Below the pieces are notes generated by a model. It was not told where the DNA came from. It searched no databases and was given only the letters and a program-made list of their open reading frames with translations. A DNA stretch of 64,000 nucleotides, taken from positions 3,253,501 through 3,317,500 of the forward strand of contig NZ_CP046565.1 in NCBI RefSeq assembly GCF_012769535.1, read 5' to 3'. The DNA is from Methylococcus geothermalis. Lineage in GTDB: Bacteria > Pseudomonadota > Gammaproteobacteria > Methylococcales > Methylococcaceae. Positions 34,814 to 45,111 of this stretch are shown in pieces. Numbering within the stretch: position 1 is the first letter of the stretch; each line of letters starts with the position of its first letter. The translations under genes and the position numbers were made by a program.

Positions 34814-34827
34814 TGGTAGCGGGGGCA
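34814..34827. other. Left attachment site (attL-like)
   Basis: The 14-base sequence matches 13 of 14 bases of the tRNA-fMet 3' end at 45098-45111. It lies exactly where the chromosomal context ends and element genes begin. The single mismatch (A for G) means that the repeat is imperfect or has drifted. Confidence 0.55.
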
Positions 34828-34891
34828 TCTACCGAACAACACGGCGTAAATGGCGCAGTTACTCGGGTTGTCGGCTGGATGCAGGATGAGT

Positions 34892-34910
34892 TACTGACAA
34901 AGTTACTGTC
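34892..34910 (+). promoter_or_regulatory. Integrase arm-type binding sites, left end
   Basis: GTTACTG occurs at 34890 and again within AAGTTACTGTC (34900-34910). The same 11-base word occurs at 44973-44983 near the integrase start, with further GTTACTG-like words there (GGTGTTACTGCC on the minus strand at 44935-44946). Repeats of one word near both ends of an integrative element are the usual pattern of arm-type integrase sites. Confidence 0.5.
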
Positions 34911-35008
34911 ATGGGAGTAGTGCTGCCTACTGACTAAGCAAAGCGATGCGAGATATAGCGAGGATTATTTGAGCATGGCAACGTCCAACAACGTATGGAG
35001 TTGCCCGA

Positions 35009-35239
35009 ATGCATCAACTTACCGAAACCGGCTTTCTGCGCATCCATCAGATCGTAGGAGATCGAAAAGCCAACCCTCCCATTCCCCCTATCATTCCTGT
35101 CTCCCGCTCAACCTGGTGGGCGGGCGTCAAAGACGGTAGATACCCCAAGCCTATAAAGATTGGGCCGCGCACCACCGTCTGGACCGTAGAAGACATCCGG
35201 GAGCTGGTAAACCGCATCCGGCGCGGGGAGTCAGCATGA
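35009..35239 (+). CDS. AlpA-family transcriptional regulator
   Basis: 76 residues with a winged helix-turn-helix of the AlpA/MerR type (LRIHQIV, VSRSTWWAGVKDGRYPKPIK, RTTVWTVEDIRELVNRI). AlpA proteins in P4-like elements activate excision or late genes. The stop overlaps the start of the replication gene by four bases. Confidence 0.88.
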   Translation: MHQLTETGFLRIHQIVGDRKANPPIPPIIPVSRSTWWAGVKDGRYPKPIKIGPRTTVWTVEDIRELVNRIRRGESA

Positions 35240-37737
35240 ATCAGGCGGTGGCGACGGTGAAGGCCGGGCGGTGGGTGAAGCCACGGTGGAGGGTTAAACA
35301 GTACCGCAGCCCATTTGAGGCGTATGTCCGCTATGGCGGGTGGCGTTTGTGTGAGATTAAACCTGGCACCAAGGCGCCGGCTGGAAAAGGCTGGAACCGG
35401 AGGGAGGCTGCGATCGACGATCCGGCGCGGGCTGGGCGGCTTGAGGCGGCTGGACTGCTGCACGCTTGGTCAGGCACGGCGGCCCTCGACGTGGATGACT
35501 TTGAGGAGGCGGACCGATGGCTTGAGGCACGCGGGATCAATTTGTCCGCGTTGCTGGGCTCGGGTGATGCAGTTCAGATCACCTCTGGCCGACCCGGCAA
35601 GGCGAAACTTCTCTACCGGCTGGCAGAGCCGAGGCCAAGTGTAAAAGTGGTAGACGATGCGGGCCAAGTGGTCTTGGAGCTGCGATGCGGCGCGGCTGGA
35701 GGACTTAGCGTACAGGATGTTTTGCCTCCTTCGGTCCATCCAGACACGGGTAACCCCTACGCCTGGGGCGGCTCAGGCAGGTGGTGGCGGCTGCCCGACA
35801 TGCCGGCGGCGCTGCTCAAAGTGTGGGACGAGCTGGCGGCGCCTTCGCACAGGCCGGATGAGGTCGCGAAGGCCGAGGCGGCGGCGGCGGTGCTGGATGC
35901 CGGGCAGCTTGCCGACCTGCGTGAGGCGCTTTTTTTTATACCAGCGGATGCATATGACACCTGGATCAAGATCGGCCTTGCCTTGGCCGGGCTGGGCGAT
36001 GCCGGGCGGGCGCTTTGGCTTGCCTGGTCTGCCACTTCGAGCAAGTTCGAGCCGGCGGCAGCCGCAAGAAAATGGGAGAGCTTCGCGGGCGCGGCGGCAG
36101 ATCATCGGGCTGTCTTTGCCGAGGCCGCGCGACGCGGGTGGACTAACCCAGCGAAGGAGCGGGCGGTGAGGGAGAGGCTGGCGGCGCAATCCTTGGCCGA
36201 GGCCGGCGGGCCGGCGGCGGCTGGCAAGCGCGAAGAGGTGCAGGCCGTTCCGGCGGTTGAAGTCGGAGGCGCGGGATGGCCGGAGCCGATGATACCGGAG
36301 GGCGTGGACGTTCCGAATATTCCGGACATTGTTTTACCGGGCTGGGTCGGCGCGATGGCCGAGGCGGTCTCGGTCAGTTGTCAGACGCCGAGCGCGGCTG
36401 CCGTCGCCGTGGCGCTGGCGGCGTTGGCGACTTGCTGTCAGAGGCGGTGGCAGGTGGCGCCGCACGCGTCTGGATATGTGGAGCCCCTCGCATTATGGAC
36501 TATAACCGCGATGCCGCCGGGCAGCCGCAAAAGCGCCGTGCTTGCGGCTTTGGCCGCGCCGTTGATCCGGTGGGAAAAACTTCAGAGGGATCGGCTTCGC
36601 CCCGAAATCGCCCGGCGGACAGCGGCGCGAGAAGTTGCGGCCAAAAGGATCGAGGGCTTGAAAAAGCGGGCGCTGCGGGTGGAGGACGCTGAGTCGCGGG
36701 CCGAGTTGGTCGCGGCGATCCAGTCGGAGTCTGAATTTATGCCGGCGGAGCTGATCCCCCCGCGCCTATTCACCGGAGACTGCACGCCGGAGAGGTTGCA
36801 GGGGCTTCTTGTGGAGCACGGGGAGGCGATGTCAGTGCTGAGCGACGAAGGCGGCATCTTCCAAGTTTTGTCGGGAGCATATTCCGGCGGGATGGCTAAT
36901 TTGGATGTGTTTTTGCAAGGGCACGCGGGCTCAGCCATGCGAGTAGACCGTGGCGGGCGGTGTGCCCACATAGATCGGCCGGCGCTAAGTTTGGGCCTGA
37001 TGATGCAGCCGGGCGTTCTGGCCGAGGTAGGCAAAAACAAAAGATTCAGGGACTCGGGATTGCTTGGCCGGTGCCTCTTTGTTGTGCCCAAGAGCAACGT
37101 TGGCGCGCGCGATGTTAGACAACACCTCGACGTGCCGGAGTACATCAAAGAGGACTGGGAGGCCGGGTTATTTCGGCTTCTGGATGGTCGCCTTGAGCCG
37201 GTGGAGGCGCCGAGGACGTTGATTTTTGGGCCAGAGGCGCGTGAGTGTTGGCTAAATTTCTCGGCTGAGATCGAGCGTAAGCAAGGCGACGGCGGGCCGC
37301 TGGGACATGTGGCCGACTGGTCGGCCAAGCTTCCTGGCGCCGTGGCTAGGATTGCAGGCTTGCTGCACCTTGCCACGCGCGGCGGCGCGGTGGAGGTGAT
37401 CGGGCGCGATGCGGTCGAGCGGGCGGTTGAGCTAGGCAAGCTTCTTATTCCTCACGCTCTCGCCGCGTTTGGGCTGATGGGGCGGGCGCCGGTTGAGGAC
37501 GACGCGCATGCGCTGTTGGCGTGGATTCGAGCCGGGCGGCGGCTGACGTTCACCGCCCGTGAAGCTCAGAGAGCGATGCGTGTTCGCTTCCCATCTCGCC
37601 CAAAGCTCGACCAGGCCCTTGCGTTTCTCGGCGATTGGAAAGTGGTGGTGGGTGCCCGGCAGACGGTGGCGGGTGGAGGGGCTGGCAGGCCCACAACCAC
37701 GTACATCGTAAATGAGCGGATTTTTGATGCAGCCTGA
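35236..37737 (+). CDS. DUF3987/YfjI-type replication protein (primase-helicase-like)
   Basis: 833 residues. The N-terminal 200 residues resemble a prim-pol-type domain (APAGKGWNRREAAIDDP, ALDVDDFEEADRWL, LLYRLAEPRP, PPSVHPDTGNPYAWGG). A primase-associated helical segment follows (ADAYDTWIKIGLALAGLG). The C-terminal 450 residues are DUF3987 (LWTITAMPPGSRKSAVLAAL, SDEGGIFQVLSGAYSGGMAN, DVFLQGHAGSAMRVDRGG, LGRCLFVVPKS). The Walker-like PPGSRKS suggests NTP binding. Such proteins replicate mobile elements; iterons begin four bases after the stop, so this is the likely initiator. Confidence 0.85.
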   Translation: MNQAVATVKAGRWVKPRWRVKQYRSPFEAYVRYGGWRLCEIKPGTKAPAGKGWNRREAAIDDPARAGRLEAAGLLHAWSGTAALDVDDFEEADRWLEARGINLSALLGSGDAVQITSGRPGKAKLLYRLAEPRPSVKVVDDAGQVVLELRCGAAGGLSVQDVLPPSVHPDTGNPYAWGGSGRWWRLPDMPAALLKVWDELAAPSHRPDEVAKAEAAAAVLDAGQLADLREALFFIPADAYDTWIKIGLALAGLGDAGRALWLAWSATSSKFEPAAAARKWESFAGAAADHRAVFAEAARRGWTNPAKERAVRERLAAQSLAEAGGPAAAGKREEVQAVPAVEVGGAGWPEPMIPEGVDVPNIPDIVLPGWVGAMAEAVSVSCQTPSAAAVAVALAALATCCQRRWQVAPHASGYVEPLALWTITAMPPGSRKSAVLAALAAPLIRWEKLQRDRLRPEIARRTAAREVAAKRIEGLKKRALRVEDAESRAELVAAIQSESEFMPAELIPPRLFTGDCTPERLQGLLVEHGEAMSVLSDEGGIFQVLSGAYSGGMANLDVFLQGHAGSAMRVDRGGRCAHIDRPALSLGLMMQPGVLAEVGKNKRFRDSGLLGRCLFVVPKSNVGARDVRQHLDVPEYIKEDWEAGLFRLLDGRLEPVEAPRTLIFGPEARECWLNFSAEIERKQGDGGPLGHVADWSAKLPGAVARIAGLLHLATRGGAVEVIGRDAVERAVELGKLLIPHALAAFGLMGRAPVEDDAHALLAWIRAGRRLTFTAREAQRAMRVRFPSRPKLDQALAFLGDWKVVVGARQTVAGGGAGRPTTTYIVNERIFDAA

Positions 37738-44934: not shown

Positions 44935-44983
44935 GGCAGTAACACCTATGGCTGTTGGTGTGGCTACTGTCGAAGTTACTGTC
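44934..44983. promoter_or_regulatory. Integrase arm-type binding sites, right end
   Basis: AAGTTACTGTC (44973-44983) repeats the left-end word exactly. Related words are GCTACTGTC just before it and GGTGTTACTGCC (minus strand, 44935-44946). They overlap the integrase start region, so the integrase may also repress its own gene. Confidence 0.5.
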
Positions 44984-45038
44984 TTTTGACGGTAGATGTT
45001 GCGGGACGGTATGCGACAACACTGGACGGAGTATAAAC

Positions 45039-45063
45039 GAAAAAGCCCGCGTGGCGCGGGCTT
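45039..45063 (-). terminator. Intrinsic terminator downstream of tRNA-fMet
   Basis: On the minus strand GCCCGCG and CGCGGGC (45045-45051 and 45055-45061) form a 7-bp stem with a 3-base loop followed by five T residues. It would end the tRNA transcript. It lies inside the proposed element boundary and so may have been brought in with it. Confidence 0.8.
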
Positions 45064-45097
45064 CGTGGGCTATATCGGTTGTTGCTGGATGGTTGAT

Positions 45098-45111
45098 TGG
45101 TGGCGGGGGCA
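45098..45111. other. Right attachment site (attR-like) in the tRNA 3' end
   Basis: TGGTGGCGGGGGCA is the 3' terminal part of tRNA-fMet read on the plus strand. It matches the left-end sequence with one mismatch. P4-type integrases normally recombine at tRNA 3' ends, so the position is as expected. Confidence 0.55.

What the first reader, a model, noticed from the sequence alone, without database searches (positions are those of the whole stretch)
34814..45111. Compact replicating integrative element at tRNA-fMet
Integrase, AlpA, a DUF3987 initiator with iterons, a RepA-like helicase with a second iteron set, a resolvase with a res-like site and C4-like immunity RNA share 10.3 kb without capsid or transfer genes. 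This combines P4-satellite and plasmid traits and may be an undescribed class of satellite or integrative plasmid.
Basis: partly seen in the sequence, partly recalled or inferred. Interest (0 to 1): 0.8.

Follow-up and report, generated by a model that had tools for sequence, protein, structure and literature searches.

The report
Family of tRNA-integrated satellite-like elements
A 10.3-kb mobile element inserted in the initiator tRNA gene of a methane-eating bacterium belongs to a small family of probable phage parasites whose members each carry their own matched RNA lock and a gene related to a phage particle gene.

Summary
The element is real and spans 34814-45111. The window's initiator-tRNA gene carries an altered 3' end; the form found in all 5 other genomes of the genus (Methylococcus) sits at the far end of the element. 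It is one of a family: the same genome holds a second element at tRNA-Val and a decayed third; two other genomes of the genus carry more. Members share integrase, AlpA, a primase slot, a 214-224-aa protein (phrog_611), C4 RNA, an AAA_25 helicase operon and a resolvase with a conserved res site; integrase and primase types vary. C4 loops match the ribosome-binding site and upstream site of their own element (best of 120 and of 24 arrangements; one cell disagrees). Best reading: a new satellite family, probably using a short-tailed phage. Helper, excision and packaging are not shown. It lacks P4's capsid-control genes and the PICMI site. New variant of a known kind.

The parts
34814..34827 (.). 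distal attachment repeat holding the native 3' end of tRNA-fMet
   Evidence: identical to the tRNA-fMet 3' end in G001-G005; only exact copy in window
35009..35239 (+). AlpA regulator/excisionase-type protein
   Evidence: PF05930 24.9 bits, cut-off 21
35236..37737 (+). primase-polymerase/helicase (Prim-Pol, PriCT_2, DUF3987), 833 aa
   Evidence: 65% identical to the G002 element protein; dN/dS 0.12
37738..38045 (.). first iteron region with AT-rich stretch, probable origin (inferred)
   Evidence: ATTTTGTC x8, 1 of 300 shuffles reaches this; 45% GC
38150..38365 (+). 71-aa ORF, unknown
   Evidence: 46% identical over 46 aa in second element
38433..38909 (+). 158-aa ORF, unknown
   Evidence: 90% identical in second element; dN/dS 0.18
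38968..39177 (+). 69-aa ORF, unknown; relatives in the G000, G001 and G002 elements
39206..39880 (+). 224-aa relative of phrog_611, a family encoded in phage virion-gene operons
   Evidence: phrog_611 2.6e-8; phage context; dN/dS 0.14-0.26
39882..40081 (+). cluster of four copies of a 27-bp palindromic repeat; further copies at 42339, 42496 and 43711(-)
   Evidence: 7 copies in window; 16 in the genome, 14 of them in the two intact elements and 2 in or beside the decayed third
40156..40178 (+). upstream target (seqA-like) of C4 antisense segments
   Evidence: GTGGAAA and GCACAAAGG complementary to C4
40188..40203 (+). intrinsic-terminator-like hairpin followed by T6, between the upstream site and C4
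40223..40308 (+). C4 antisense RNA
   Evidence: RF01695, 68 bits
40345..40353 (+). downstream C4 target over the ribosome-binding site of the 99-aa ORF
   Evidence: 9 nt complementary to C4
40363..40662 (+). 99-aa leader ORF of the AAA_25 operon
   Evidence: 79% identical in second element
40655..40759 (+). 34-aa hydrophobic ORF, no family match
   Evidence: 94% identical in second element, 50% in G002
40756..41013 (+). 85-aa ORF, unknown
   Evidence: 94% identical in second element, 43% in G002
40994..42196 (+). AAA_25 RepA-like helicase
   Evidence: PF13481 7.1e-40; dN/dS 0.29-0.35
42197..42310 (.). second repeat array (TGGCACTCTTCG type, both orientations)
   Evidence: sequence; same layout by eye in G002 and G001, other motif in second element; not above chance in the window alone
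42585..42921 (.). tandem repeats at 36-bp spacing
42954..43093 (+). res site with several GATAGAC motifs
   Evidence: conserved upstream of the resolvase in 4 of 4 elements
43125..43700 (+). serine resolvase
   Evidence: PF00239 9.3e-37, HTH_7; dN/dS 0.11-0.13
43708..44934 (-). tyrosine integrase
   Evidence: PF13356, PF22022, PF00589; phrog_1
45098..45174 (-). tRNA-fMet whose 3' end 45098-45111 is supplied by the element

Best explanation
It is an integrated satellite-type element. Shown by sequence comparison: (1) a circle inserted at the 3' end of a tRNA gene, supplying its own 3' end and displacing the native one to 34814; (2) it belongs to a family with the core order AlpA, primase, phrog_611 protein, C4 RNA, AAA_25 operon, res/resolvase; (3) members have different C4 specificities that fit their own targets. 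Inferred: in the integrated state the C4 RNA pairs with the ribosome-binding site of the 99-aa leader ORF and with an upstream site, and so silences the AAA_25 replication operon. Different C4 loops let several members live in one chromosome. A helper phage or AlpA relieves the silence; integrase and AlpA excise the circle; primase and AAA_25 protein replicate it from the repeat regions; the resolvase cuts multimers at res. Helper particles, most likely of a short-tailed (podovirus) type, carry it, and the element's own phrog_611-like protein joins or alters the internal/ejection proteins of those particles.
For: Native/altered tRNA ends: 5 of 5 other genomes have GCTACCA; the window tRNA has GCCACCA and 34814 has GCTACCA. 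Second element at tRNA-Val with 15-bp exact ends, G002 element at tRNA-Ser with 64 bp at 95%; third remnant. Same core order in the second element and G002, and in two G001 contigs read together; AlpA above Pfam's cut-off in 4 of 4. C4 pairing: true assignment best of 120 downstream and best of 24 upstream. dN/dS 0.07-0.35 in the 7 genes compared. phrog_611 homologues lie in virion operons of G021's prophage-like region and of Vibrio phage 1F273_PE002. In PICMI115, int, alpA and iolg are needed for excision and prim for replication on a helper (PMC10803314, passages).
Against: No helper found: P22-type portal in 0 of 6 genomes of the genus; in the host one weak match (30 bits) to phrog_2, which I recall as the large terminase, though G002 and G005 have strong ones. 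Phage relatives of the phrog_611 protein are distant (26%); its model was poor (pLDDT 57); no match to T7 gp14. No capsid-size or packaging gene found. The left flank does not match an empty site in relatives. The int-alpA RNA of the other members is not found in the window. In one search the second element's loop matches G002's downstream stretch (8 nt) better than its own (6 nt).
Confidence: 0.6

Rival explanations
1. Integrative plasmid: it excises and replicates as a plasmid through the AAA_25 protein and the iterons, resolves dimers with res/resolvase, and moves without any phage; the phrog_611-like gene is a passenger.
For: AAA_25 relatives in 14 plasmid records, all under 60% identity; iterons behind the primase; resolvase with conserved res site; no helper found.
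Against: The phrog_611-like gene is present in the four elements whose middle can be read and shows dN/dS 0.14-0.26; C4 and AlpA are satellite/prophage-type controls; no relaxase or transfer family in scans of all 12 proteins. AAA_25 relatives are also found in 87 phage records.
Confidence: 0.25
2. Decayed prophage or satellite remnant, no longer mobile.
For: A clearly decayed copy exists in the same genome; transposase genes lie next door and the left flank has no clean counterpart.
Against: Intact frames, dN/dS 0.07-0.35, matched C4 targets and att ends; same core order in other species.
Confidence: 0.12
3. Ordinary P4-like or PICMI satellite.
For: Integrase, AlpA, DUF3987 primase, C4 RNA, about 10 kb.
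Against: No hit named Psu, Sid, delta or epsilon in scans of all 12 proteins; at tRNA-fMet, not at fis; extra AAA_25 operon, resolvase and virion-type gene.
Confidence: 0.1

Closest known systems
P4-like satellites (P4/P2)
   Same: integrase, AlpA, C4-type antisense RNA upstream of a replication operon (P4 mechanism recalled), about 10 kb
   Different: no Psu, Sid, delta or epsilon found; two replication modules; resolvase/res; phrog_611 protein; Methylococcus instead of Enterobacterales
PICMI satellites of Vibrionaceae
   Same: integrase + AlpA + DUF3987-type primase, no capsid-remodelling gene found
   Different: site is tRNA-fMet, not fis; adds C4, AAA_25 operon, resolvase and a virion-type gene; 10.3 kb against 6.1 kb for PICMI115
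C4 immunity of P1/P7 and P4 (recalled)
   Same: antisense RNA with segments matching a site upstream and one downstream over a ribosome-binding site; different specificities
   Different: upstream of an AAA_25 operon; five different loops among five copies, three of them in one genome
AlpA/AAA_25 elements of other Gammaproteobacteria
   Same: AAA_25 at 40-56% identity, AlpA in 6 of 11 stretches, integrase in 6 of 11
   Different: AlpA adjoins AAA_25 in 4 of those 6; C4 in 0 of 11; phrog_611 relative in 0 of 11

Membership tests
P4-like satellites | tyrosine integrase and AlpA | tested here: met
P4-like satellites | Psu, Sid, delta, epsilon | tested here: not met
   no hit so named in Pfam and PHROGs scans of all 12 proteins; remote homologues not excluded
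P4-like satellites | alpha replicase | tested here: inconclusive
   primase-helicase with Prim-Pol, PriCT_2, DUF3987 present; not compared with P4 alpha itself
P4-like satellites | C4-type immunity RNA | tested here: met
   RF01695 68 bits; targets
PICMI | integrase, AlpA, DUF3987-type primase | tested here: met
   definition in PMC10803314 passages
PICMI | integration next to fis | tested here: not met
   sits at tRNA-fMet
PICMI | packaging as concatemer in a virulent phage | not testable with these tools
   needs phage particles
Phage satellite (general) | transfer in helper particles | not testable with these tools
   no particle data; helper searches
Integrative conjugative or mobilizable element | relaxase or mating apparatus | tested here: not met
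   no such family
Integrative element at a tRNA gene | flanking repeat equal to the tRNA 3' end, with swap of ends | tested here: met
Integrative element at a tRNA gene | empty site in relatives with the same flanks | tested here: inconclusive
   left flank matches only G005, to 34384, about 0.5 Mb from that genome's tRNA-fMet

The most novel reading that the evidence does not exclude
A family of satellites that parasitise short-tailed phages by supplying their own version of an internal virion (ejection-apparatus) protein instead of remodelling the capsid, and that share chromosomes by means of mutually blind C4 antisense locks.
Probability: 0.35. Interest if true: 0.8.

Novelty: new variant of a known kind. 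Interest (0 to 1): 0.62.

Why it matters
Satellites described so far mostly redirect capsid size or packaging of their helper (PMC10803314 introduction; otherwise recalled). A satellite with its own ejection-type protein would be a new point of attack and would suggest which phage to look for. The five C4 loops with their targets are a ready natural set for testing antisense specificity and incompatibility between co-resident elements. The tRNA 3'-end swap is a clean marker of past integration.

Tried and rejected
Structure of the 224-aa protein: AlphaFold2 with 3 rows gave pLDDT 57, all helix; no fold search was made on it. Profile comparison with T7 gp14 found nothing, and a profile search of solved structures gave only four weak hits (0.046 or worse), so 'ejection-type' rests on gene position only. 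Relatives of the phrog_611 protein were sought in phages (0 at 1e-3), viral contigs (0) and one genome per species (2 loci, both contigs of one Methylococcus genome). G021's phage-like copy, used as query, found one phage record. A wide distribution is rejected at that sensitivity.

Empty site: the left flank matches G005 only to 34384, and the terminator that follows tRNA-fMet in most relatives is absent from the window; I rely on the tRNA-end swap. The match in G101 (5.1e-6) was not followed. The single-sequence match in G021 was not reached by the profile of satellite rows, but phrog_611 finds it and G012; G012 was not examined further. The second repeat set does not beat shuffles in the window. 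A link between the C-terminal part of AAA_25 and the array motif is suggested by one case of four and is not claimed.
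Full report
Setting. The window is part of a single-contig 3.37-Mb genome. Two contigs of the same-genus genome G001 have the same lengths as contigs titled Methylococcus sp., so the host is taken to be a Methylococcus; no species name comes from a call.

Boundaries. tRNA-Met(CAT) lies at 45098-45174 on the minus strand. Its 3' end, in tRNA sense, reads TGCCCCCGCCACCA. In G001-G005 (5 of 5 other genomes of the genus) it reads TGCCCCCGCTACCA, and exactly that sequence stands at 34814-34827. Within two mismatches these are the only two places in the window. This is what integration of a circle at the 3' end of a tRNA gene leaves behind. The changed base sits opposite the first base of the acceptor stem and leaves that pair unpaired, as initiator tRNAs need (recalled). 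Against a full proof: the left flank matches only G005, to 34384, about 0.5 Mb from that genome's tRNA-fMet, so no clean empty site is available.

A family. The phrog_611-like gene and its surroundings recur in the same genome at 2.013-2.025 Mb (L009), where a 15-bp exact copy of the tRNA-Val 3' end closes the element. Larger matching pieces are 80-95% identical, but the primase is another type (PriCT_2 + Toprim) and the integrase is 54-55% identical. A third, broken copy near 427 kb (L010) keeps C4 RNA and fragments of the integrase, the 69-aa ORF and AAA_25; of the phrog_611 gene only a piece of DNA at its end remains. In G002 an element of 13.7 kb sits at tRNA-Ser with ends alike at 95% over 64 bp. 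In G001 one contig holds the front half (tRNA-Ser, integrase, int-alpA RNA, AlpA, Toprim primase, start of the phrog_611 gene) and another the back half (rest of that gene, C4, AAA_25, resolvase, with tRNA-Glu beyond); a third contig holds another piece of the gene. AlpA passes Pfam's cut-off in 4 of 4. Core order is AlpA, primase, phrog_611, C4, AAA_25, resolvase; the 69-aa ORF lies before the phrog_611 gene in the two intact G000 elements and after it in G002 and G001, and the 158-aa ORF was found only in the G000 pair. Thus 3 of 6 genomes of the genus carry the family by this gene; among 201 genomes of the order 4 have any match to the family profile, the fourth weak and not followed. Seven genes compared between members show dN/dS 0.07-0.35. 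In the window the integrase is inverted relative to the rest, compared with L009, L025 and L026, and int-alpA RNA, present in those three, was not found in the window.

Replication modules. Behind AlpA comes the primase slot, filled by DUF3987 (window, G002) or Toprim types (L009, G001). The commonest 8-mer in the stretch behind it differs: ATTTTGTC in the window (8 copies, 1 of 300 shuffles), GGCAGTTA in L009 (3, 10 of 300), CACAAAAC in G002 (4, 11 of 300), nothing above chance in G001 (225 of 300); a coding control gave 84 of 300. The AAA_25 gene is followed by a second array: the same layout by eye in G002 (10 of 300) and G001 (0 of 300), another motif in L009 (0 of 300), not above chance in the window alone (121 of 300). 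Elsewhere in the class, AAA_25 at 40-56% identity occurs in 9 of the 368 other genomes drawn at E 1e-30. Of these I took 11 stretches from all 9 genomes (one further G546 match was not taken): AlpA in 6 of 11, adjoining AAA_25 in 4 of those 6; an integrase relative in 6 of 11; a phrog_611 relative in 0 of 11; C4 in 0 of 11. So the Methylococcus elements look like two replication systems joined, one behind AlpA and one under C4 control. That is inference.

C4 lock. C4 RNA is found in the five copies whose back part is held. In each, a loop segment is complementary to the ribosome-binding site of the first ORF downstream, and in four also to a site upstream; the loops differ. With the target sites picked after seeing them, the own target is best in 5 of 5 downstream and 4 of 4 upstream. 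With whole 75-80-nt stretches instead, the true assignment is still the best of 120 downstream and the best of 24 upstream. One cell goes against it: the second element's loop has 8 nt with G002's downstream stretch against 6 with its own. An intrinsic-terminator-like hairpin lies between the upstream site and C4 (40188-40203); no sigma-70-type promoter passed the scan there. The three copies in the host genome have three different loops, which fits co-residence.

Virion-type gene. The 224-aa product matches phrog_611 (2.6e-8); the satellite members score 2e-4 to 2e-8, so the relationship is distant. In G021 the phrog_611 gene follows genes with a P22-type portal, phrog_437, phrog_399 and phrog_511 and precedes an acetyltransferase, a 491-aa ORF and a giant ORF with glucosaminidase and DarB-like parts. 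In Vibrio phage 1F273_PE002, with other ORFs between, the order phrog_511, phrog_611, 513-aa ORF, giant ORF recurs. This is the place of the internal core proteins in T7, but there is no sequence match to gp14 and the structure model is too poor to use.

Resolvase. The res region 42954-43093 is conserved in 4 of 4 elements, with blocks nearly unchanged in spacing although flanks differ. A role in cutting multimers is inferred; it would fit concatemer packaging as shown for PICMI115 (PMC10803314; outline, sections 4 and 7 and passages seen).

Family repeat. A 27-bp palindromic repeat occurs 16 times in the genome: 7 in each intact element and 2 in or beside the decayed third; the control pattern gives 0. 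It was not found in the G001 and G002 elements. Its role is unknown.

Helper. A P22-type portal is absent from 6 of 6 genomes of the genus. A search with phrog_2, which I recall as the large terminase, gives one weak match in the host but strong ones in G002 and G005; it also rings in 11 of 14 control genomes. So tailed prophages exist in the genus, but no candidate helper has been tied to the element.

Known kinds. [quoted passage not shown] outline, section 5 and passages seen); no hit with four of these names was found. PICMIs were searched for by integrase, AlpA, DUF3987/DUF5906 primase and fis (PMC10803314); the site test fails. A 2026 survey of nine Methylococcus genomes reports eleven prophages of 29-71 kb and uses 'satellite' once, for companion bacteria (PMC12924245; outline, section 12 and passages seen); its minimum of ten phage genes would probably exclude these elements. 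The searches listed no paper on such a family among the rows shown, which is no proof of absence.

Verdict. A real, family-forming integrative element with a well-supported C4 control circuit. That it is a phage satellite, and that it uses a short-tailed helper, is the likeliest reading but unproven.

Noticed in passing
L042 4185-16814 (G002 tRNA-fMet locus): Another, unrelated-looking 12.5-kb element occupies the same tRNA-fMet in G002, with a 104-bp end repeat at 98%.
   Followed up: partly
L010 7572-10480: The decayed third copy lies just behind what reads as the 3' end of mnmE (named by eye, no call).
   Followed up: partly
window 39882-43737: 27-bp palindromic repeat, 16 copies in the genome, all in or beside the three elements; function unknown.
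   Followed up: partly
window 45312-48539: IS481-like and IS1380-like transposase genes directly beyond the tRNA; they may explain the rearranged surroundings.
   Followed up: no
window 9134-9204: narK RNA motif (RF03032) just upstream of a transporter-like ORF at 9270-10580.
   Followed up: no
G021:C1:1501000-1540000 (L028, L029): Prophage-like region with P22-type portal and an ORF of over 5400 aa with glucosaminidase and DarB-like parts.
   Followed up: partly
L070 (plasmid pBYT1-1): AlpA followed by an AAA_25 ATPase gene beside TnsA-type and transposase genes on a Pseudomonas plasmid.
   Followed up: no
window 40655-40759: 34-aa hydrophobic ORF in the C4-controlled operon, 94% identical in the second element and 50% in G002, no family match; could be a Kil-like peptide.
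   Followed up: partly
G012:C1:1401217-1401741 (L083): A second phage-like phrog_611 gene in the family, next to nothing examined.
   Followed up: no
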